The translations under genes were made by a program, and so were the position numbers. Below are positions 49,949 to 59,300 of a stretch of DNA of 64,000 nucleotides, piece by piece (position 1 is the stretch's first letter; every line of letters starts with the position of its first letter). The notes beneath the pieces were generated by a model. It made no database searches. It saw only the letters and a program-made list of their open reading frames with translations, and was not told the DNA's origin. The stretch is from Synergistaceae bacterium (GTDB lineage Bacteria > Synergistota > Synergistia > Synergistales > Aminobacteriaceae): positions 1-64,000 of the forward strand of contig JAFSJJ010000020.1 of NCBI GenBank assembly GCA_017439345.1, read 5' to 3'.

Positions 49949-50734
49949 ATGCCCGTAAAAAATGCTGTTGAAATCGTACAGGAAATTATTAACATGCAGA
50001 AACGCCCCTTCATGACAGTCAAGAACTTAGCTCTTGTAATGGGTGCTCAGTTACGAAGGCAGTTAGGACTCGAAGACTGTAAAACAAGTGCAGAAATAAA
50101 ACGCGCTCTTGAACCCCTACTAGGCGGCAAATTTATTTTTCACAAGAAAGGTGCTTTTCTTTATATTCTCGTTCCCTGTGATCCTGTTGACTTAGTCAGA
50201 ACCGAACTCTCAACCGAACAGCCCAAAGGTGCAGCAGGTATCGCTTCAGTATTGCCGTACTCGAAAGCTGACGTATCGAGAATATTGAATCACCTGTTAG
50301 ACACAGGAGAAGCGAAATTGATTCTTAGTGAAAATCTTGCAACTAGAATTATAGCTACAGGTCATAAAGCAGCCGATACGCATGAAGTTTACGAGTTTAA
50401 CTCAGAGTCAGAGTCAGAGCCTGAGCCGGAGTCTAAAGCACAGCAGGGACTCGAGCAAGTGCAGGAGTCAAATTTAAGTTTCAGTCAGAAGAAATTCATT
50501 AACGCACTTAGAGAACTTGACAACGGAAATTATTTCGTGAAAATTTTTGCATTGCGTCAAAAACTTAACTGGCCCCGCGAAGTCTTTGATGACATGTTAA
50601 GAGAACTCAGGGACAAAGAAATTATTCAGATGCACATAGCTGACACGACTCTAATGACTCCTGATGAAGTTAATGACTGCTTTATCGACGAGAATAATTA
50701 CAGAATGGGAACGGTAACGCTAAATGCCAGATAA
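49949..50734 (+). CDS. Multi-winged-helix protein, first gene of an ATPase/nuclease/pseudopilin operon
   Basis: 261 residues, no family recognised with confidence. Three winged-helix-like segments can be seen: residues 5-85 (NAVEIVQEII...KGAFLYILVP), 95-135 (GIASVLPYSKADVSRILNHLLDTGEAKLIL) and 170-235 (SFSQKKFINALREL...FDDMLRELRDKEIIQMHI). The second and third are split by an acidic Ser-Glu-Pro linker. No membrane segment is present. Its end overlaps the ATPase start by 11 bases. It is probably a DNA-binding or adaptor partner of that ATPase. Confidence 0.65.
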   Translation: MPVKNAVEIVQEIINMQKRPFMTVKNLALVMGAQLRRQLGLEDCKTSAEIKRALEPLLGGKFIFHKKGAFLYILVPCDPVDLVRTELSTEQPKGAAGIASVLPYSKADVSRILNHLLDTGEAKLILSENLATRIIATGHKAADTHEVYEFNSESESEPEPESKAQQGLEQVQESNLSFSQKKFINALRELDNGNYFVKIFALRQKLNWPREVFDDMLRELRDKEIIQMHIADTTLMTPDEVNDCFIDENNYRMGTVTLNAR

Positions 50735-52667
50735 CAACGCAATAATTCAAGCACTCAAAGAAAACAATCCGTTTATGTCGTCAGCTTCTCCCCTGCCTTG
50801 GGATAACAATACGCCTGACTTGGTGCAGCTCAACCGTGAAGCTTCGGATGAGATAGAGCAGCTTATACTTCACAAGAGACGTTTGCCTTCAACTCCTCTT
50901 GCAGGTTTAGTCTTAGGTGAACCGGGCAGCGGAAAGACCCACATGCTGACCAGAATGCTTAGGAAACTGAGGAAACATGCAAAGCTGGCTATATTCGTTA
51001 CTGTAAAGACATTCGTAGACTCTGAAAGCGTAACATATGATCTTCTCTCAGAGATTCTTATAAGCCTTTCGCAGGTTCACAGTTCCGGCAAGTCCCAATT
51101 TGATATGCTGGTTAATGAAGTCATGAGATCATATAATGAACGCAGACTCAATGACGGCTTCACTGACATCAGCAAAATTGACATGAGGACTTATCTGGCT
51201 AAAGACATGAAAGGGATAAATAAAAACGTCCTGAAGTGTTTAATGCTCTACATAACGACTACTGACGAGAGCGTTAAATGGCAGATTATTGACTGGCTGC
51301 GTGAAGGTCTCGATGAGGAAGAATCGCACCAGCTTGGCCTGCCTGTCCGTGATGTAAGCTCGATGTCTATTGCAACGCGCGAGAATGAAGCTCAGAAAAT
51401 TTTATTATCTCTGGGATTACTGCTAAGTTATGCTAATGTGCCTATGATTATATGCTTTGACCAGCTCGACGCAATGAAGAGTCATGAATTAATAGCAGCA
51501 TGGGGCAGCGTAATTAATCTGCTCGTAAATGACTTGCAGGGTGTCCTGCCTTTATGCTTCCTGAGATTCACTATATGGAACGACTTTATCAAGCCTTATT
51601 TAGATACTCCTGTTATACAGCGTCTTGAACATCACATAATCGTAATGAAAGAGTGTTCGCTTGCTCAGGCAAAGTTATTAATTCGCGGCAGAGTAGACGC
51701 AGCCTTCGAGAATAGTAATCCCGAAGAGAAATATAACTGGTTAATGTCTAGACTCGATAAAAAATTAAAGCCGGGATTCTCCCCTCGAATGGTAATCGAT
51801 CTTGCTAATAAAGAAATACAAGATGCAAAGCCTGATGATGATAACGGAGGCAGTAAAGACGGCAGCGGCAGTAATAATAATAATGATGACAAGAAAGAAA
51901 TCTTCAAGATTATCCGGAATGCCTATAGCGAAGAATGCAGAAAGATAAAAGCTCAGCCCTCAGCATATCCCCCGAATCCTGATCACATAGCTATAGCTCT
52001 TGAAGTGTGGCTGAAGTTTCATGAAGGCTTTGAAGCAACCAGATACAAAGATAAACGGCACTTGAAGATTCGCGGCAGATACAAGGGCAGAGATTACGCG
52101 TTCTATATAGTTACGGCAAAGATAGCTTACTTGGCAATCGGTGCTATGAAACAGGGAATAAAATTAATGGAAGATAATCCCGGCATGCGGTGCTTTTATA
52201 TTTCAGAGGCAAAATTTCACGCTCCAAGCAGGAAGAAGTCAAATGAGACTCTTGAAGACTTCAAAGACTCCGGCGGACGTGCTTATATTATCAAAGAAGA
52301 TGATCGCGCAGGCTGGTACGGACTCAAAGCTCTTATAGACAGAGTAGACAACGGCGATGTTGATTTATTATTAGCTTCAGGGATCAGGACGGCAACACGT
52401 GAGGACATGAAAGACTTCATGCTTAGTCTAAAACCTGTAGAGATTGAAATTGATTATAACAAACTCGGCTATAAACTTATGGACATAATAAAAGTTTCGC
52501 CCATGAAGATATTAGCGGCTAATAAGGCAGTCGAGCTTCTGGCAGAGAAGAAAATAATAATTTCTGACTCAGAGTTAATTGCGTTCGTGAAATCTAATCT
52601 TGATGTATTCAAAATATTTGAGTCAAAGAATGAGATGTTAATAGGCTTGACCGGCAAGAGTAAATAA
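50724..52667 (+). CDS. AAA-type P-loop ATPase of an undefined nuclease module
   Basis: 647 residues. Walker A GLVLGEPGSGKTHML is near residues 62-76, and Walker B MIICFDQLDAM near 236-246. An N-terminal NPFMSSASPLPW motif and an ORC/Cdc6- or KAP-like helical region (about 80-380) are followed by a Gly/Ser/Asn/Asp-rich linker (about 372-392). A separate C-terminal alpha/beta domain (about 410-560: HLKIRGRYKGRDYAFYIV, RCFYISEAKFH, RAYIIKEDD) has an E-x-K-like spot but no confirmed nuclease motif. It is cytoplasmic. The Cas4-like gene follows after 3 bases. The function is not known; DNA processing or defence is inferred from the partners. Confidence 0.7.
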   Translation: MPDNNAIIQALKENNPFMSSASPLPWDNNTPDLVQLNREASDEIEQLILHKRRLPSTPLAGLVLGEPGSGKTHMLTRMLRKLRKHAKLAIFVTVKTFVDSESVTYDLLSEILISLSQVHSSGKSQFDMLVNEVMRSYNERRLNDGFTDISKIDMRTYLAKDMKGINKNVLKCLMLYITTTDESVKWQIIDWLREGLDEEESHQLGLPVRDVSSMSIATRENEAQKILLSLGLLLSYANVPMIICFDQLDAMKSHELIAAWGSVINLLVNDLQGVLPLCFLRFTIWNDFIKPYLDTPVIQRLEHHIIVMKECSLAQAKLLIRGRVDAAFENSNPEEKYNWLMSRLDKKLKPGFSPRMVIDLANKEIQDAKPDDDNGGSKDGSGSNNNNDDKKEIFKIIRNAYSEECRKIKAQPSAYPPNPDHIAIALEVWLKFHEGFEATRYKDKRHLKIRGRYKGRDYAFYIVTAKIAYLAIGAMKQGIKLMEDNPGMRCFYISEAKFHAPSRKKSNETLEDFKDSGGRAYIIKEDDRAGWYGLKALIDRVDNGDVDLLLASGIRTATREDMKDFMLSLKPVEIEIDYNKLGYKLMDIIKVSPMKILAANKAVELLAEKKIIISDSELIAFVKSNLDVFKIFESKNEMLIGLTGKSK

Positions 52668-52670
52668 TAA

Positions 52671-53333
52671 ATGAACGCTGGAAATAGAAAAGTATATACA
52701 ACTGTGAGCGATATTGCCCTGTGTCAAAAATGTCCTGCTCTGCTTGCGTATAAAATTCATATGGGCTTCAAGTCTGCGTTCAGAGTCGGAATCAAAGGCA
52801 GCGGAGATCCTTACGGGACGATCTTTCACAAGAATATAGCTCAAGTATTCTTTGAGGCAGCAGCTAACCCTAGAAATCATCTGCACGGTGAAATTATTCA
52901 TGCTGTGTCAGGCGGCTTCAGGTCTCTTGAGAATGTCATACGCGATAAAATATTTCTGCCGTTCATAGATGCTAACTCGCGGAATTTAACATCAGGGCAG
53001 ATAATCTCTATGGCTTCAGGAGTCAGAGTCTGGGTTCGTGCAATGTCGGAATTCTTCAGGGGAATACGTTCACTGACTCAGGAGGTCTTTATCAGGCCCG
53101 AATTAAGACTGCAGGGCGAATATACTTTCATGAATGCAGACAGCCTTGTTATAACAGGACGCTATGACGCATTATTATTCAATCCTGACAGGGGCGAGGC
53201 AAGATTATTCGAATTCAAAGGATATAATAAGAGCGATATAGTTGTGCCGTTGTCTCAAAGTCTAGTTTACTCATGGCTTATAGAACGCATGACAGGTATA
53301 ACGCCTTCAGTTGAGATAATATATTTAAGATGA
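52671..53333 (+). CDS. Cas4/RecB-like PD-(D/E)XK nuclease, truncated by a frameshift
   Basis: 220 residues. The Cas4-type order is seen: CQKCP (Cys18, Cys21) at the first Fe-S position, His53 in GTIFHKNIA, Asp166 in TGRYDALLF, Glu181 and Lys183 in EFKG, and the QxxxY motif (Gln196, Tyr200). The frame ends at VEIIYLR, where Cas4 proteins normally continue about 50 residues to a C-x2-C-x5-C Fe-S motif. That motif is present downstream in another frame, from 53329 on (DERSIEPDVF and further). Skipping one base near 53328 restores it. There is no cas1, cas2 or CRISPR array nearby. Confidence 0.75.
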   Translation: MNAGNRKVYTTVSDIALCQKCPALLAYKIHMGFKSAFRVGIKGSGDPYGTIFHKNIAQVFFEAAANPRNHLHGEIIHAVSGGFRSLENVIRDKIFLPFIDANSRNLTSGQIISMASGVRVWVRAMSEFFRGIRSLTQEVFIRPELRLQGEYTFMNADSLVITGRYDALLFNPDRGEARLFEFKGYNKSDIVVPLSQSLVYSWLIERMTGITPSVEIIYLR

Positions 53334-53352
53334 AAGGAGCATAGAACCAGAC

Positions 53353-54048
53353 GTGTTTAGTTCAAGTACAGTAAGTGATTTAATGAAGTCGGGACTCGAA
53401 AATTTATTTGAATCAGTCTTTAACGTTGTATCACTGAAAAATTTATCGTTCATGAAAAATATTAATACAGGCAAAAAATTATGTTCTGAGTGTATGTTTT
53501 CAGGACGGTGCAGAAGCGATATTGCTTCAAGATTTAATAACAGGCGGAAGGGAATATCGTTATTAAGCGTAATTATATTCACGGCATTTGCTTTCATGGT
53601 CATATCTCAGGTATTCTTTTACTCGGTGAATTCAAATGAGTCAGTAATCGAAGAGCGCGAAATCATGAGAGTCAGAATAATTCTCGGGGACATGATAAGG
53701 CAGGCCAAGAGTCACACAAGTTCAGCAGCTTCAATCTTAAAAGGCGAAATAAAATATAACGAGTTCAGAAAAGAGTCACCTAATAACTTTTATAAGCTGT
53801 CAGGAACGCCTTCAAATGTGAGTGTCGAGATTCATAATCTTAATTACACTTTTGACGACTCAGGCTTTAGCCACTCAGAATGGATGAAGCTCAAGCCGTA
53901 TGAACATATATTTGACCAGATTCCGGGAGCGTATTTAATCCGTGCATATTCACCGGTTACTAAGGACAGGAGTTTAATGATTCAAGCCGTAGTGAACAGT
54001 TCAGGGAATATATTAACTTGGCAAGAAGTCTGGTACACTAAAGAATGA
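53353..54048 (+). CDS. Nuclease Fe-S tail joined in frame to a pseudopilin
   Basis: 231 residues in two parts. Residues 1-60 are the displaced end of the Cas4-like nuclease with CSECMFSGRC (Cys44, 47, 53). From residue 64, RRKGISLLSVIIFTAFAFMV looks like a prepilin cleavage site (after Gly67) and the hydrophobic helix of a type IV pilin-like protein. A globular periplasmic domain follows. No stop separates the two parts. A pilin start could be the ATG at 53494, within the Cys motif, giving a short prepilin leader. The next gene overlaps by 4 bases. Confidence 0.65.
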   Translation: MFSSSTVSDLMKSGLENLFESVFNVVSLKNLSFMKNINTGKKLCSECMFSGRCRSDIASRFNNRRKGISLLSVIIFTAFAFMVISQVFFYSVNSNESVIEEREIMRVRIILGDMIRQAKSHTSSAASILKGEIKYNEFRKESPNNFYKLSGTPSNVSVEIHNLNYTFDDSGFSHSEWMKLKPYEHIFDQIPGAYLIRAYSPVTKDRSLMIQAVVNSSGNILTWQEVWYTKE

Positions 54049-55484
54049 ATTTATTTTTCAAGAGAGTCAGCGGCGGCGTTGAAGCAGGCTTATCGATTCA
54101 TAATAAATTTCTGCGCTACGTTGAACTCGATGAAATGCACGAAAGAATCCGTGAAGTTACTATTGATCTTCCAGAAGGCTGCGTCGTCAATAGTTCGATA
54201 AAAAATTTTTCGCTGCTGGAACAGTCTTTTGTCAAACTCAGAGAGACGATCAGAGATTTTCATGCTCCTGTAGTAATCGGTCTGCCTTCAGGTGATGTGA
54301 ATATAAAGCCTCTGCCGTTTCCTGATATGCCGATAGAAGATATAAAGAGTGTTATTTCTACGAACTTCGAGGAACATTTTACGCTTCCTGCGAATGACTC
54401 TGTATTTGATGCCGTAATAGTTTCGACTCCTCCGTCATCACAGCATAAAGTTAATAATATAACAGCTATTGCAGTTGCTGCACGAAGATCGCGGGTAGAT
54501 TTACTGCTTGAGACTGCACGAAAAGCCGGAATGACAATTAAAGCAATTGAACCGTCAAGTTTCTCGCTGTTAAGATCAATCACGGAAGACTCTGAAGGGT
54601 TATGCATTTTCGCTGACCCTAGATCTATAATCGCTACATGGCAGGGGCACGGAATATTGTTCAGGTCGGCTGATAACACAAACAGCTTTAACGCCATGAG
54701 AAGCACAATACAATTTGTAGAGAGTACATACAGGGGAGTCAGAGTAAGCAAAATAATTCTCGCTCAGGTAAATTTTCAGCTTACGTCAACTCCTGAAGTC
54801 CAAGTCGTAAATATTAAAGATATGTATTATTCTGCAGAAGGTCTTGCATTGCGTGAAAGTTCTGATTTAGTGTTAGATTTGCGTCCTGCTGATTATGTCG
54901 CCCTCGAGAAGAGAAGAAATTCATTGAATGCCAGCCGTATAGTTCTTGCGTCGTTGACTTCGGCTTTCCTGCTCTTATCGCTGGGAACTGTAATTTTTAC
55001 GTTCGTCAGGATGACATTGATTCAGAACGCCATAGAGATAAATCACCTGCTTGTCAATGAACTTGCATTGAAGCGCAATGACTTGATAAAAGATAATGCC
55101 CGCCTTCAGAAAATAAAAGCTCAGACTGAGAGAAATATAGATTTCCTGATTGATGACATGCCCGTACTTGAAGTATTGAACTCTATAGAAGTCAACGCAG
55201 GAACAGGCATAAAGATAGACGACACAAGTTTTGCACGTTCCGGCCAAGTCTTAACAGTGAGCATAAACGGTACAGCTTCAGATGAGAAATCACTAATTTC
55301 ACTGAGTGAAGGACTCAAAGCAACAGGAATGTTTCAAGATGTCATGATGCCCACGACTCAAAAGAATGCTGCTAATGAGTCTGACTCAAGTTCAAATGTA
55401 AATAACGTTAATAACGTAAAATTCAGCATAACTCTTACACTAAGGAGTGAAAATAACGATGACGCTAACAAGAATCAAAGCTAA
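54045..55484 (+). CDS. PilM-PilN fusion, type IV pilus/secretion assembly protein
   Basis: 479 residues. The first about 285 resemble the actin-like PilM/GspL cytoplasmic domain (VEAGLSIHNKFLRYVEL, VVIGLPSGDVNIKPLPFPDM, VAARRSRVDLLLETARKAGM). A membrane helix (IVLASLTSAFLLLSLGTVIF, about 305-324) and a PilN-like coiled coil and ferredoxin-like domain follow. PilM and PilN are normally separate proteins that bind each other at the inner membrane; here they are joined, as in GspL. It lies between two pseudopilin genes. No assembly ATPase or PilC gene is in the window. Confidence 0.75.
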   Translation: MNLFFKRVSGGVEAGLSIHNKFLRYVELDEMHERIREVTIDLPEGCVVNSSIKNFSLLEQSFVKLRETIRDFHAPVVIGLPSGDVNIKPLPFPDMPIEDIKSVISTNFEEHFTLPANDSVFDAVIVSTPPSSQHKVNNITAIAVAARRSRVDLLLETARKAGMTIKAIEPSSFSLLRSITEDSEGLCIFADPRSIIATWQGHGILFRSADNTNSFNAMRSTIQFVESTYRGVRVSKIILAQVNFQLTSTPEVQVVNIKDMYYSAEGLALRESSDLVLDLRPADYVALEKRRNSLNASRIVLASLTSAFLLLSLGTVIFTFVRMTLIQNAIEINHLLVNELALKRNDLIKDNARLQKIKAQTERNIDFLIDDMPVLEVLNSIEVNAGTGIKIDDTSFARSGQVLTVSINGTASDEKSLISLSEGLKATGMFQDVMMPTTQKNAANESDSSSNVNNVNNVKFSITLTLRSENNDDANKNQS

Positions 55485-55908
55485 AGGCTTCACTTTGACC
55501 GAGCTGATTATATGCATGGGAATAATGTTATTAGTTGTATATATCTCTATGGGTTCACACATAGGCGACCAGACAGCCAAACAGGAGGCCGAGAAGCTCG
55601 AGATATGGCTTGCACGAATCACCCAGCAGGCAATAAGAACAAGACGCGGCTTTGAACTTACTGCATCAGGTTCAGACGTAAAGATTACATGGAGCGATAA
55701 TCTGAAGACAGAAAGATTTGACGCGACTCCGGGCTGCACTTTCGCATATAGTAAAAATAAGATTATATACAATCCTTCAGACAACGGCGTTGGAACTACT
55801 AACGGACACTTTACAGTTACAGGCCAGGACAAGAGCAAATATTATATATACGTAAGCACTACAGGCAGGATAAGACTTTCAGATTCAGGCTCAGAGGCTG
55901 AAGACTAA
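55459..55908 (+). CDS. GspH/FimT-like pseudopilin
   Basis: 149 residues from the ATG at 55459. A GTG at 55447 overlaps the ribosome-binding site. A classic type III prepilin leader, MTLTRIKAKG followed by FTLTELIICMGIMLLVVYI, carries the conserved Glu5 after the cleavage Gly. The remainder is a beta-rich minor-pilin domain with an acidic tail. It overlaps the PilM-PilN gene by 26 bases and ends the operon. Confidence 0.85.
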   Translation: MTLTRIKAKGFTLTELIICMGIMLLVVYISMGSHIGDQTAKQEAEKLEIWLARITQQAIRTRRGFELTASGSDVKITWSDNLKTERFDATPGCTFAYSKNKIIYNPSDNGVGTTNGHFTVTGQDKSKYYIYVSTTGRIRLSDSGSEAED

Positions 55909-55958: not shown

Positions 55959-55996
55959 AAAGCGAAATTTTTATTTTTTAACAGGATGTGCTCAAC

Positions 55997-57100
55997 TTGC
56001 AAAACAAATCACTACAGCCTAAAGCTAAAACTAGAACAAGAAAACGAAGCCGCAAAATATTCTTTGTCTTCATATTGCTATTTCTGCTCTTATGGTCAGC
56101 CATAGCCGCCGCAGCCATATCTTATTATTACAAAGCACCGTTGAACTTTTGGGAGGGTATTATACCGTTACCCGAAGGCAGCAAAATCAATGTCGTAATC
56201 GAGCAGGGAATGAATGCGAGTCAGGCAGCCCGAGCTTTCGAGATTCAGGGGGCATTAGAGAAAGGGACTCCTTCACAGTTAGCGCATTGGATGGTCAAAT
56301 TTGGGATCGACAAAAAGATTCGAGCAGGTCATTACAGCGTTGTGCCTTCTGATCCATGGAACTTGGCCAGACAGTTAAAGACTCTTAAGCCTGCGTTGTT
56401 GAAGCTCCAGATTTTGCCGGGACTTGATATATTCTCGTTGATGGACTCACTTGCGAGTCAGGATAATAAAATCACCCAGCAAAGTTTCACAGAAGCATTA
56501 TTGCGCGATGAGAATTACCCTCCCGAAATGGCTGAAATTATAAAGCTGTTAGTTGACGATGAATTCACCCGGGCTGCGTTCTTGCTGCCTGAGACTTATA
56601 TGTTGGTTGACAGGACTCCCGACGAAGCCGTTAATGCTGCTGCCTCTGCATGGTGGAAGCAATGGGGAGGCTTTATCAATGCTAACAAACTGACAGCTCA
56701 GGACTTGATAAATTCTGCAATTGCTGCCTCAATGATAGAACGTGAAGTCCTGCGCGATTCTGAATGCAAAATAGTATCAGGGGTAATCAAGAACAGACTC
56801 GCTAAGAAAATGCTGCTTCAGATTGATGCTACTGTGGTGTATGCATGGAGACTCGCAGGCCGGAAATTGACCCGAGTGCTGAATAAAGATTTAGAGATCG
56901 AGTCGCCCTATAACACTTACAAGAACGCAGGACTCCCGCCAAGACCTATTTGCGTTCCCGGTTCAGCAGCATGGGAAGGAGCTTTAAACCCCGAAGAGAA
57001 TGATTATTATTATTACGTAGCAAGAAAGAACGGTTATCATTATTTCTCGAAGACTTACAACGAACACTTGAGAAATATCAAGCTGGCACGTTCTGAATAA
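55997..57100 (+). CDS. mltG: Endolytic transglycosylase MltG (YceG family)
   Basis: About 367 residues. A basic N-terminus and one membrane helix (IFFVFILLFLLLWSAIAAAA) precede a LysM-like segment and the YceG domain. The catalytic Glu lies in AASMIEREV, followed by GVIKNRL, LQIDATVVYA, SPYNTYKNAGLPPRPI and YHYFSKTYNEH, all family hallmarks. It cleaves nascent glycan strands and sets chain termination. The TTG at 55997 is about 10 bases from AGGA and is preferred over a GTG at 55988. Confidence 0.9.
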   Translation: MQNKSLQPKAKTRTRKRSRKIFFVFILLFLLLWSAIAAAAISYYYKAPLNFWEGIIPLPEGSKINVVIEQGMNASQAARAFEIQGALEKGTPSQLAHWMVKFGIDKKIRAGHYSVVPSDPWNLARQLKTLKPALLKLQILPGLDIFSLMDSLASQDNKITQQSFTEALLRDENYPPEMAEIIKLLVDDEFTRAAFLLPETYMLVDRTPDEAVNAAASAWWKQWGGFINANKLTAQDLINSAIAASMIEREVLRDSECKIVSGVIKNRLAKKMLLQIDATVVYAWRLAGRKLTRVLNKDLEIESPYNTYKNAGLPPRPICVPGSAAWEGALNPEENDYYYYVARKNGYHYFSKTYNEHLRNIKLARSE

Positions 57101-57131
57101 ATAATAATTATTATGATAAGGAGTGAATTAT

Positions 57132-59300
57132 TTGGCTCGAAAGAATAAAAACAAAGGCAGCTGGGCAGAGTTAATCTTATTCGTGATGATAATATTCTGT
57201 TTCTTCTGCATTCTTTCACTGTTCGACAGTCCATTGACCGGAGACTCAGGGCGCGAATGGGGGAAATATCTTCGTTCGTCATGGGGAGGCGCGTTAATTG
57301 TCCCGTTGATGTTCGTGCTTTATCTGTGCATAGCAAAATTATTCAAGTTACGGGTTATCAGAATTCCGCGTCAGATTTTGGGAACTATACAGCTTTATGT
57401 TTCGTTTGCCTTCATGCTTGGCTTACTCAAAGAGACGGGCTGGGACTCGGAACGGACTCTATTTATACCAGGCAGCTTTGGTCATGGACTTGCAAAATTT
57501 TTCGTGTTGAACATAGGGACATTCTTGACGCTGATATTAGTAATATGTTCGTTTATTCTGACGGCGTATTTATTCGGCTCTAAGATATTGACTCTCTCTA
57601 TACCTCAGATTTCCATGAAGTCGTTAAAGTCTCTTAGATTCAAGAAGAGTTCAGGCTCATCATCTAGACGAAGACCGCGCAGAGAAATGGAATACGAAAA
57701 CGAGCGCAGTTACCCTGAAGGCAGACCCGAAAATATATTATTCCCGTTTGACATTCCTGAGCCTAAATTTAATGATGAATATTCAGACTCAGAATCAGAC
57801 TCAGACTCTGTGCAGTTCTCCCAGAGAATTCCCGATCCTGTATTCAAGCCAGAGCCTAAGCCTAAGCCCGAAGCTCAGCACTTAGACCCGTTCAAGAAGG
57901 CAATAAATCTTTTCGATGACTTGATTATTTCTCTTGAAGCCGGTGAAATGAATGCCCCCGGTAAAAGAAAGCATGTAAATAGAACAGTACGCAAGATCAG
58001 AAGGCCATTGCCTACGGTGAGTATTCCTGCTCCTGATCCTGTTGATGATGATAAAGCTAAAGCAAAAGTGAAAGCGTCATCGTCAAAGCCTGAGTCAAAG
58101 CGCGAGTCCAAGTCAGAGTCAAAATCACAGGGCGAACCTCCAGCATTTCCTCCGCCGATTGATATATTTGGCATCAAGCAGCCGTTCGAGACCGATAAAA
58201 ATATCATGAAAGACTCAGAGAAGCAGGGACGTGAAGTTATTGCAGCTCTTAAAAATTTTGGAGTCAGTGCTTCAATTGCGAATATTATCAACGGTCCGTC
58301 AGTCATTCAATATCAATTAGAGTTAGCACCGGGTACTAAAGTAAATAAACTTCTTGAACTGTCTGATGATTTGGCTATGTCTCTTGCAGTTATTGCAGTC
58401 AGGATAGAAGCTCCGATATTAGGGACTCACTATGCCGGCGTTGAAGTTCCTGCACCTGAGCGCAGAATAGTATCATTGAGAAATATTCTTGAGTCTCCAG
58501 AATATCAAGACAGCACAGACAGACTCCCTTTGGCTTTGGGAATGCAGTCAAACGGAAAAATTTTCGTTCAAGGACTTAACGAGATTCAGCACTTATTAAT
58601 AGCAGGTTCTTCCGGGAGCGGCAGGAGCGTGTTTATAAATTCGTGTATATTAAGCATGTGCTTCAAGAGGAGTCCTGATGAGTTAAAGTTAATCTTGATT
58701 GACACAAGGCACTCTGACTTTACGCTTTATGAATATCTGCCTCACTTAATAGCTGCTCCTGTCAATGACGTTAAGCACTCAATAAAGGCTCTGAACTGGG
58801 CGTTAAATGAAGTCGAGTCTCGCTGTTCAAAGTTCTTGAATGCCAAAGTCAAGAATCTCTCAGCGTACAACCGCAAACTTGCAAAAGAAAAAAGACTCCC
58901 TGAAATCGTAATTATTATTAATGAACTTGCGGATTTAATGTACTCTTCAGGAACAGAGACAGAAAATTTGATAATCAGGCTTGCTCAGAAGGCAGGACTT
59001 GCCGGGGTTCACATGATATTAGCGGCAAAGACTCCATCAAGCGAGATAATTACTAACCCTATAAGAGCGAATATACCTGCTAAAGTTGCGTTGACGTTGT
59101 CTTCAGCGAATGAGTCGATTAATATTCTTGATTCTGCTGGCTCAGAGAAGCTCACGGGCAAGGGCGATATGTTATTCAAGAGTTCGAGTCTGCCGTTACC
59201 CGTAAGAATTCAGGCACCGTTTATCAGTGAAGAGAAAGTTTCGGAGTTCGTTGACTATCTTGCAGGTAATTTGAATCCTCCGGACTTGATAAAGTTTTAG
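57132..59300 (+). CDS. FtsK/SpoIIIE-like protein with substituted ATPase motifs
   Basis: About 722 residues. Four N-terminal membrane helices, a Pro/Ser/Glu-rich linker with several Lys-Pro-Glu-Ser runs, then FtsK alpha and beta domains; the DNA-orienting gamma domain is absent. Key residues differ from functional translocases: Walker A reads AGSSGSGRSV (Arg for the catalytic Lys), Walker B reads VIIINELADLM (Asn for Asp), and the LATQRPS block is LAAKTPS. The family's IDPKRVE is IDTRHSD. It is therefore likely a non-hydrolysing or altered FtsK relative. The TTG start has AAGGAG 8 bases upstream. It follows mltG by 31 bases. Confidence 0.85.
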   Translation: MARKNKNKGSWAELILFVMIIFCFFCILSLFDSPLTGDSGREWGKYLRSSWGGALIVPLMFVLYLCIAKLFKLRVIRIPRQILGTIQLYVSFAFMLGLLKETGWDSERTLFIPGSFGHGLAKFFVLNIGTFLTLILVICSFILTAYLFGSKILTLSIPQISMKSLKSLRFKKSSGSSSRRRPRREMEYENERSYPEGRPENILFPFDIPEPKFNDEYSDSESDSDSVQFSQRIPDPVFKPEPKPKPEAQHLDPFKKAINLFDDLIISLEAGEMNAPGKRKHVNRTVRKIRRPLPTVSIPAPDPVDDDKAKAKVKASSSKPESKRESKSESKSQGEPPAFPPPIDIFGIKQPFETDKNIMKDSEKQGREVIAALKNFGVSASIANIINGPSVIQYQLELAPGTKVNKLLELSDDLAMSLAVIAVRIEAPILGTHYAGVEVPAPERRIVSLRNILESPEYQDSTDRLPLALGMQSNGKIFVQGLNEIQHLLIAGSSGSGRSVFINSCILSMCFKRSPDELKLILIDTRHSDFTLYEYLPHLIAAPVNDVKHSIKALNWALNEVESRCSKFLNAKVKNLSAYNRKLAKEKRLPEIVIIINELADLMYSSGTETENLIIRLAQKAGLAGVHMILAAKTPSSEIITNPIRANIPAKVALTLSSANESINILDSAGSEKLTGKGDMLFKSSSLPLPVRIQAPFISEEKVSEFVDYLAGNLNPPDLIKF

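What the first reader, a model, noticed from the sequence alone, without database searches (positions are those of the whole stretch)
49949..55908. Undefined operon joining a winged-helix protein, AAA ATPase, Cas4-like nuclease and type IV pilin-like genes
Six genes are tightly packed on one strand with overlaps of 4-26 bases and gaps of 3-19 bases. The first three form a DNA-processing module (multi-winged-helix, ATPase with separate C-terminal domain, PD-(D/E)XK nuclease with Fe-S cysteines) that matches no defence system I can name. The rest are two pseudopilins and a PilM-PilN fusion. Co-transcription could mean DNA uptake or handling coupled to a pilus, or a defence module that has landed in a pilus locus.
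Basis: inference. Interest (0 to 1): 0.75.

Follow-up and report, generated by a model that had tools for sequence, protein, structure and literature searches.

The report
Phage-defence-like nuclease fused to pilin
A gut bacterium and its relatives carry a DNA-cutting module that resembles predicted anti-invader systems, but its DNA-pumping motor is gone and its nuclease has been joined to a building block of a type IV pilus (a surface hair), hinting at a defence or DNA-processing device built into the pilus.

Summary
The six genes are real and packed as described, with one correction: in this genome the nuclease is broken by one extra base near 53,326-53,333, so its three C-terminal cysteines lie in the next ORF, in frame with the pilin. 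In relatives, nuclease and GspK/PilX-like pilin form one uninterrupted ORF in 20 of 30 loci; in 10 of 30 they are separate neighbouring genes. The ATPase occurs in 39 of 43 genomes of the genus (gut Synergistaceae), and the module's divergence follows that of flanking housekeeping genes. In sister genera the same winged-helix and ATPase genes sit next to a nuclease fused instead to an FtsK motor. That full form, found in several phyla, matches the 'Orc/CDC6 - HerA/FtsK capture systems' predicted by Rakesh, Aravind and Krishnan (2024). The finding is therefore a new variant of a known, still untested kind: the pump was lost and a pseudopilin took its place. Most likely the module acts on DNA at the type IV pilus, and prepilin peptidase may cut the fusion into nuclease and pilin. 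The anatomy is well supported; the function is inferred.

The parts
49949..50734 (+). multi-winged-helix (wHTH) protein, 261 aa
   Evidence: ORF; only weak MarR/TrmB hits; conserved family A2/A5 with a strong C-terminal wHTH-like block; directly upstream of the ATPase in 30 of 30 loci that hold both
50724..52667 (+). Orc/Cdc6-fold AAA+ ATPase with an alpha/beta domain (about 410-550, order of elements like a restriction-endonuclease fold) inserted before a C-terminal winged helix, 647 aa
   Evidence: Pfam AAA_22/KAP; AF2 pLDDT 87; best structural matches Cdc6/ORC, Z 16.2 to 1fnn; Walker A and Walker B residues invariant or nearly so
52671..53333 (+). Cas4/AddB-type PD-(D/E)XK nuclease, N-terminal and catalytic part (220 aa), cut short by a frameshift
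   Evidence: H, D, E-x-K and Q-x3-Y motifs and N-terminal Cys invariant or nearly so in relatives; Cas4 hits of full-length relatives; AF2 fold of L031
53326..53333 (+). site of the one-base frameshift relative to relatives; the TGA at 53331-53333 ends the first frame
   Evidence: sequence against uninterrupted relatives; profile match of the window genome splits here
53332..53553 (+). nuclease C-terminus with Fe-S-type cysteines (codons at 53482, 53491, 53509), running in frame into a prepilin-type leader ending RRKG
53554..54048 (+). GspK/PilX-like minor pilin, no Glu at +5
   Evidence: AF2 of relative L031 residues 324-460 matches minor pilin 7o5y (Z 7.1) and GspK 3ci0_K (Z 7.0); homologous stand-alone pilX next to pilM and pilN in a sister genus
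54045..55484 (+). PilM-PilN fusion, type IV pilus inner-membrane platform
   Evidence: Pfam PilM_2/PilN, NCBIfam pilM
55447..55908 (+). GspH/ComGD-like minor pilin (alternative ATG start 55459)
   Evidence: N_methyl/GspH, ComGD/GspH
55988..57100 (+). mltG (YceG), conserved downstream neighbour, housekeeping
   Evidence: Pfam YceG 4e-59; synteny
57123..59300 (+). housekeeping ftsK without gamma domain, conserved downstream neighbour; not the module's FtsK
   Evidence: tree; gamma domain found in sister genera but not here

Best explanation
A mobile Orc/Cdc6-type 'HerA/FtsK capture' module (winged-helix protein, Orc/Cdc6-like AAA+ ATPase, Cas4-type nuclease fused to an FtsK DNA pump) was inherited or acquired in the family Synergistaceae. 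In the ancestor of this genus it became fixed directly upstream of a type IV minor-pilin/PilM-PilN operon, the FtsK motor was lost, and the nuclease was joined to the pilin pilX. Proposed working: nuclease and pilin are made 1:1 as one polyprotein (or from overlapping genes). The nuclease stays on the cytoplasmic side of the inner membrane at the pilus platform and is then released by prepilin peptidase at the conserved basic-Gly site, or stays tethered if not cut. The wH protein and the ATPase load on incoming or foreign double-stranded DNA and activate the nuclease, so that DNA arriving through or at the pilus is degraded or trimmed, with the pilus taking the place of the lost pump. Shown: anatomy, conservation, absence of the FtsK part, fusion ORFs, folds (predicted). 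Inferred: processing, location, DNA substrate, defence role.
For: ATPase in 39 of 43 genus genomes, one of them a fragment only. Module and pilX adjacent in 29 of 29 judgeable loci of 32. Fused ORF in 20 of 30 loci. Module distances track flanking housekeeping genes (for example nuclease against PBP, Mantel r 0.89, 0 of 999 permutations). Catalytic residues and cysteines invariant or nearly so in 27 sequences, Walker motifs in 29. Sister genera: nuclease-FtsK fusion in 8 loci (for L112 FtsK_SpoIIIE 7e-38, FtsK_alpha 2e-7 and PDDEXK_1 1e-8 in one protein). ATPase has an Orc/Cdc6 fold. A published predicted class has the same parts. The genome has PilB/PilT-type ATPases, a prepilin peptidase and ComEC.
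Against: No experiment. Ten of 30 loci keep nuclease and pilin as separate genes and the state changes at least 6 times on the tree (4 forced by starred branches), so covalent fusion is not required. In the window itself the nuclease is frameshifted. If prepilin peptidase cuts at the Gly, the nuclease ends as a free cytosolic enzyme and the pilus link is one of co-expression only. In L050 the module plus pilX has no pilMN next to it (that genome's pilMN is on another contig). The capture class itself is a computational prediction.
Confidence: 0.5

Rival explanations
1. The module is an ordinary cytosolic capture/defence system that happens to be co-transcribed with pilus genes. The fusion is a harmless read-through, because prepilin peptidase removes the nuclease as an oversized leader, so fused and split genes give the same mature proteins.
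For: Fused and split states interconvert repeatedly; the basic-Gly cleavage site is kept in fused ORFs; two fused loci (L048, L053) carry a GTG with a ribosome-binding-like site five codons before the cleavage Gly; prepilin peptidase is present.
Against: Adjacency to pilX in 29 of 29 loci over deep divergence although several loci have other upstream neighbours; the window's three nearest labelled relatives are all fused; the absence of the FtsK part coincides with the pilin link.
Confidence: 0.27
2. The module has been domesticated for natural transformation: the Cas4-type nuclease and Orc-like ATPase process DNA taken up by the pilus for ComEC transport or recombination, rather than destroying it.
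For: The GspH-like pilin scores with competence ComGD; ComEC in the own genome and in 52 of 61 genomes examined; the module is vertically inherited like a core function.
Against: ComEC occurs equally in families without the module, so uptake does not need it; the nuclease would be cytoplasmic, after the step at which one strand is usually removed (recalled); the module's relatives look like restriction systems.
Confidence: 0.13
3. Neutral remnant: after losing the FtsK motor the module is non-functional and the fusion is decay.
For: The window copy is frameshifted; a few genus members have no match to the ATPase (G001, G019, G036, G095) or keep only a fragment (G025).
Against: Active-site residues, cysteines and Walker motifs are kept across 27-29 diverged sequences; 39 of 43 genus genomes keep the ATPase.
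Confidence: 0.1

Closest known systems
Orc/CDC6-type HerA/FtsK capture systems (Rakesh, Aravind, Krishnan 2024, PMC10853773; predicted)
   Same: Orc/Cdc6-like AAA+ with a domain inserted before a C-terminal wHTH; separate wHTH gene; active-looking nuclease; in sister genera an FtsK motor with FtsK-alpha fused to the nuclease, and in a cyanobacterium an added 3'-5' exonuclease domain, all as described there
   Different: In the focal genus no FtsK motor is attached; the nuclease is joined to a type IV minor pilin; chromosomal, vertically inherited locus. The words pilin, Cas4, Synergist- and Planctomycet- do not occur in the main text of that paper.
Cas4 / AddB / Argonaute-associated Cas4 (ACE1) nucleases
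   Same: Fold, PD-(D/E)XK motifs and four-cysteine arrangement
   Different: No CRISPR or Argonaute context was seen among the neighbours; joined to pilin or FtsK
Modular type IV pilins (for example S. sanguinis PilB, PMC8179133; only the start of the abstract seen, in the listing)
   Same: A pilin carrying an additional domain
   Different: There the extra module is on the mature, exported side (recalled); here the extra domain precedes the signal and would be cytoplasmic
SspH / DndH / MADS mad8
   Same: Contain an FtsK/HerA motor
   Different: The profile matches are not specific: the window's housekeeping FtsK hits SspH about as strongly

Membership tests
Orc/CDC6-type HerA/FtsK capture system | Orc/CDC6-family AAA+ ATPase | tested here: met
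   AF2 model; Cdc6/ORC top matches; NCBIfam Orc1-type hit 3e-5, below its cut-off
Orc/CDC6-type HerA/FtsK capture system | inactive REase domain between AAA+ and C-terminal wHTH | tested here: inconclusive
   An alpha/beta domain with REase-like order of elements lies between AAA+ and wH; it was not folded or searched alone
Orc/CDC6-type HerA/FtsK capture system | active REase domain | tested here: met
   Cas4/AddB-type nuclease with intact motifs in relatives. The window copy is frameshifted. Whether it is one of the two REase families of the paper was not tested.
Orc/CDC6-type HerA/FtsK capture system | HerA/FtsK motor in the system | tested here: not met
   Absent from the module in the focal genus; present in 8 sister-genus loci as nuclease-FtsK and in L104 as ATPase-FtsK. 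The ftsK at 57123-59300 belongs to the housekeeping clade.
[quoted passage not shown]
   261-aa wH protein, fastest-evolving of the three (mean distance 0.55-0.57); number of wHTH units not determined
Cas4-type Fe-S nuclease | PD-(D/E)XK motifs plus one N-terminal and three C-terminal Cys | tested here: met
   fold; in the window split over two frames
Cas4 of CRISPR-Cas | next to cas1/cas2 | not tested
   No cas1/cas2 search was run; neighbours shown are cell-wall and pilus genes
Type IV minor pilin GspK/PilX | basic residues + Gly leader followed by a hydrophobic helix and pilin fold, no Glu5 | tested here: met
SspFGH / DndFGH | specific SspH/DndH match and partner genes | tested here: not met
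   SspH match is generic FtsK (control); no SspF/SspG/DptF/DptG hits among the proteins scanned

The most novel reading that the evidence does not exclude
A counter-invader restriction system that exchanged its DNA pump for a type IV pilus: the nuclease is synthesised as the cytoplasmic 'leader' of a minor pilin and, with an Orc-like loader, intercepts DNA as it enters at the pilus. This would be a pilus-coupled restriction machine and a natural nuclease-pilin polyprotein processed by prepilin peptidase.
Probability: 0.3. Interest if true: 0.87.

Novelty: new variant of a known kind. Interest (0 to 1): 0.68.

Why it matters
For the predicted Orc/CDC6-type HerA/FtsK capture systems I found no experimental test. 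A lineage that swapped the pump for a pilin is a natural experiment on what the motor is for, and it suggests a place (the pilus, an entry route for phage and transforming DNA) where such systems may act. A nuclease as a prepilin leader would also be an unusual polyprotein, testable with a simple prepilin-peptidase assay.

Tried and rejected
Membership in Ssp/Dnd/MADS: PADLOC SspH (2e-58) and mad8 hits of the sister-genus fusion looked specific until the control, the window's own housekeeping FtsK, gave SspH 3e-53; rejected. Recently mobile defence cassette: rejected for the focal genus, where distances track flanking genes. The ATPase gave no match in viral contigs, plasmids or phages, and none in the 104 of 185 phylum genomes outside the family (family size 81). 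Window ftsK derived from the module's FtsK: rejected by the tree. Programmed frameshift at 53331: not excluded, but relatives have no shift and I saw no slippery or RF2-like site (reading); assembly error and true mutation could not be told apart. Sequence profiles of ATPase and wH against PDB found nothing. Paper searches for a nuclease-pilin fusion or for this module: (open-licence PMC only); none lists a nuclease-pilin fusion, judged from the listings.

Rows dropped: A1 used 29 ATPases (window + 28 of 32 loci; L043, L060, L061, L062 left out as truncated); A3 used 27 of 30 nuclease loci (L035, L054, L061 truncated); L047 was counted as fused although its pilin part stops early; L058 was counted as split although its pilX start is unclear; the script missed the pilin of L054, which the printed sequence shows and which I counted as fused. 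The tree labels 20 fused and 10 split rows; the window row was unlabelled.
Full report
Observation. The six ORFs exist at the stated places with the stated packing. The main correction concerns the junction of genes three and four. The 220-aa nuclease ORF (52671-53333) ends at a TGA, and the missing nuclease C-terminus, with C-x2-C-x5-C, continues in the +1 frame and runs without a stop into the pilin (53332-54048). In relatives both parts are in one frame, and a profile search of the window genome splits there. So this genome carries a frameshifted copy.

The fusion. In 20 of 30 relative loci one ORF (about 450-550 aa where complete) holds the Cas4-type nuclease, its cysteine cluster, a 13-28 residue linker rich in basic residues and ending in Gly, and a pilin; in 10 of 30 nuclease and pilin are separate, mostly with a 4-base overlap. 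Seven fused loci (L031, L032, L040, L042, L055, L057, L061) have no ATG, GTG or TTG between the last cysteine and the Gly, and in these the nearest in-frame start lies 20 or more codons before the Gly. Others have nearer starts, and in L048 and L053 a GTG with a ribosome-binding-like site lies five codons before the Gly, so those may make a free pilin as well. On the ATPase tree the state changes at least 6 times (at least 4 forced by starred branches), with several all-fused clades, among them the window's relatives L031, L032 and L061. AlphaFold2 of L031 (pLDDT 82.9) gives two parts: residues 1-292 like AdnA (Z 15.2, rmsd 3.7, 222 aligned), AddB, ACE1 and Cas4, and residues 324-460 like a minor pilin (7o5y, Z 7.1, rmsd 4.2, 111 aligned) and GspK (3ci0_K, Z 7.0, rmsd 3.2, 95 aligned).

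Conservation. The ATPase profile matches 53 of 185 genomes of the phylum, all in the window's family: 39 of 43 of its genus (G025 by a fragment only) and 14 others (family size 81). Of 32 loci, 29 hold wH-ATPase-nuclease-pilX in that order, 22 hold pilMN, and 18 have rsmH divergent upstream; several of the rest end with the contig, but some (for example L033, L034, L050, L056) have other upstream neighbours. Distances of wH, ATPase and nuclease correlate with those of PBP, MltG, RsmH and MurE (r 0.34-0.89; 0 of 999 permutations in 11 of 12 tests, 15 of 999 for wH-MurE), so the module is vertically inherited in the genus, evolving faster than its neighbours. Active-site and cysteine positions are invariant or nearly so in 27 nucleases, Walker motifs in 29 ATPases.

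What the module is. In sister genera the same wH and ATPase are followed by a nuclease fused to an FtsK motor (8 loci), with FtsK_SpoIIIE, FtsK_alpha, PDDEXK_1 and Cas4 hits in one protein (L112). In F. fastidiosum (L104) the ATPase itself is fused to the motor and no nuclease ORF was found at the locus. Some loci have a nuclease ORF without motor (L106, L114, L115; L114 has motor fragments behind it). A scan of the collection of 84,980 species found 109 relatives, 80 kept: Synergistaceae, termite-gut Planctomycetaceae, a Methanomicrobiales archaeon (wH and ATPase only), and distant ATPases in Planctomycetes, Deltaproteobacteria, Cyanobacteria and Acidobacteria. I examined 19 of these 80 loci. 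Of the 11 distant ones among them, 9 carry an FtsK-bearing ORF right behind the ATPase; the nuclease part is clearly recognised in 4 (L174, L178, L184, L193) and not, or only below threshold, in the other 5. In the cyanobacterium L184 a 3'-5' exonuclease precedes the nuclease. The ATPase model (pLDDT 87) matches Cdc6 and ORC best (1fnn Z 16.2, 313 aligned, rmsd 20.5 over several domains; TnsC 7mcs Z 13.9, 252 aligned, rmsd 3.7).

Comparison with the literature. Rakesh, Aravind and Krishnan 2024 (PMC10853773; abstract and outline, passages, sections 22 and 26 whole) describe neighbourhoods with an Orc/CDC6 ATPase, an inactive REase inserted before its C-terminal wHTH, an active REase, a HerA/FtsK (one set with FtsK-alpha), a 2-4 wHTH protein, and sometimes a 3'-5' exonuclease. 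They propose interception of invader DNA during segregation, transfer or packaging. The full form found here fits that description. The 2026 BREX paper (PMC12839542; passages, first of four parts of the reference list) repeats the idea. The focal genus fails one defining feature, the HerA/FtsK motor. It is therefore filed as a derived variant, not a member in the strict sense; it may still work like one. PADLOC 2.0.0 gives only generic hits, and its SspH hits were shown to be unspecific.

Function. The genome has PilB/PilT-type ATPases, a prepilin peptidase and ComEC, so a working type IV pilus and DNA uptake are plausible. A prepilin leader is cytoplasmic (established for class III signals, recalled), so the nuclease would face the cytoplasm at the pilus base. 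Cleavage after the Gly would release it and make fused and split genes nearly equivalent, which would explain why the state flips on the tree. I therefore favour a polyprotein that ensures joint production, with the module acting on DNA arriving at the pilus. That the target is foreign DNA rests on the company the module keeps elsewhere, not on a test. Competence processing and an independent cytosolic role remain open.

Verdict. My estimates: anatomy about 0.9 sure; pilus-coupled action on DNA about 0.5; defence through the pilus about 0.3.

Noticed in passing
window 57123-59300; L222, L212, L215: The genus's housekeeping FtsK lacks the C-terminal gamma (DNA-reading) domain: 19-32 residues follow the motor in the 14 focal FtsKs, against 76-142 in 10 sister-genus FtsKs; Pfam FtsK_gamma hits in L212 and L215 but not in the window or L222. 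XerC/D and dif were not examined.
   Followed up: partly
L104:8006-11305, L163:6710-9763: ATPase and FtsK motor fused into one protein (1,099 and 1,017 aa) without the nuclease, in F. fastidiosum and in a termite-gut planctomycete MAG: the same rearrangement in two phyla.
   Followed up: partly
L174:11050-13623, L184:11053-13683: Cyanobacterial version: L184 carries a 3'-5' exonuclease, a PD-(D/E)XK nuclease and an FtsK motor in one protein (Pfam); L174 has the same length and profile match.
   Followed up: partly
L159:8289-10755: A Methanomicrobiales archaeon MAG has only the wH and ATPase genes; transfer or binning error not separated.
   Followed up: no
L117 (G025:C3) and L062 (G025:C6): A genus member with stand-alone pilX-pilMN-pilH and only a fragment of the ATPase elsewhere: apparent loss of the module.
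   Followed up: partly
L111:4024-5805: Between ATPase and nuclease of one sister-genus locus lie a second short wH-like ORF and a 470-aa ORF of unknown nature.
   Followed up: no
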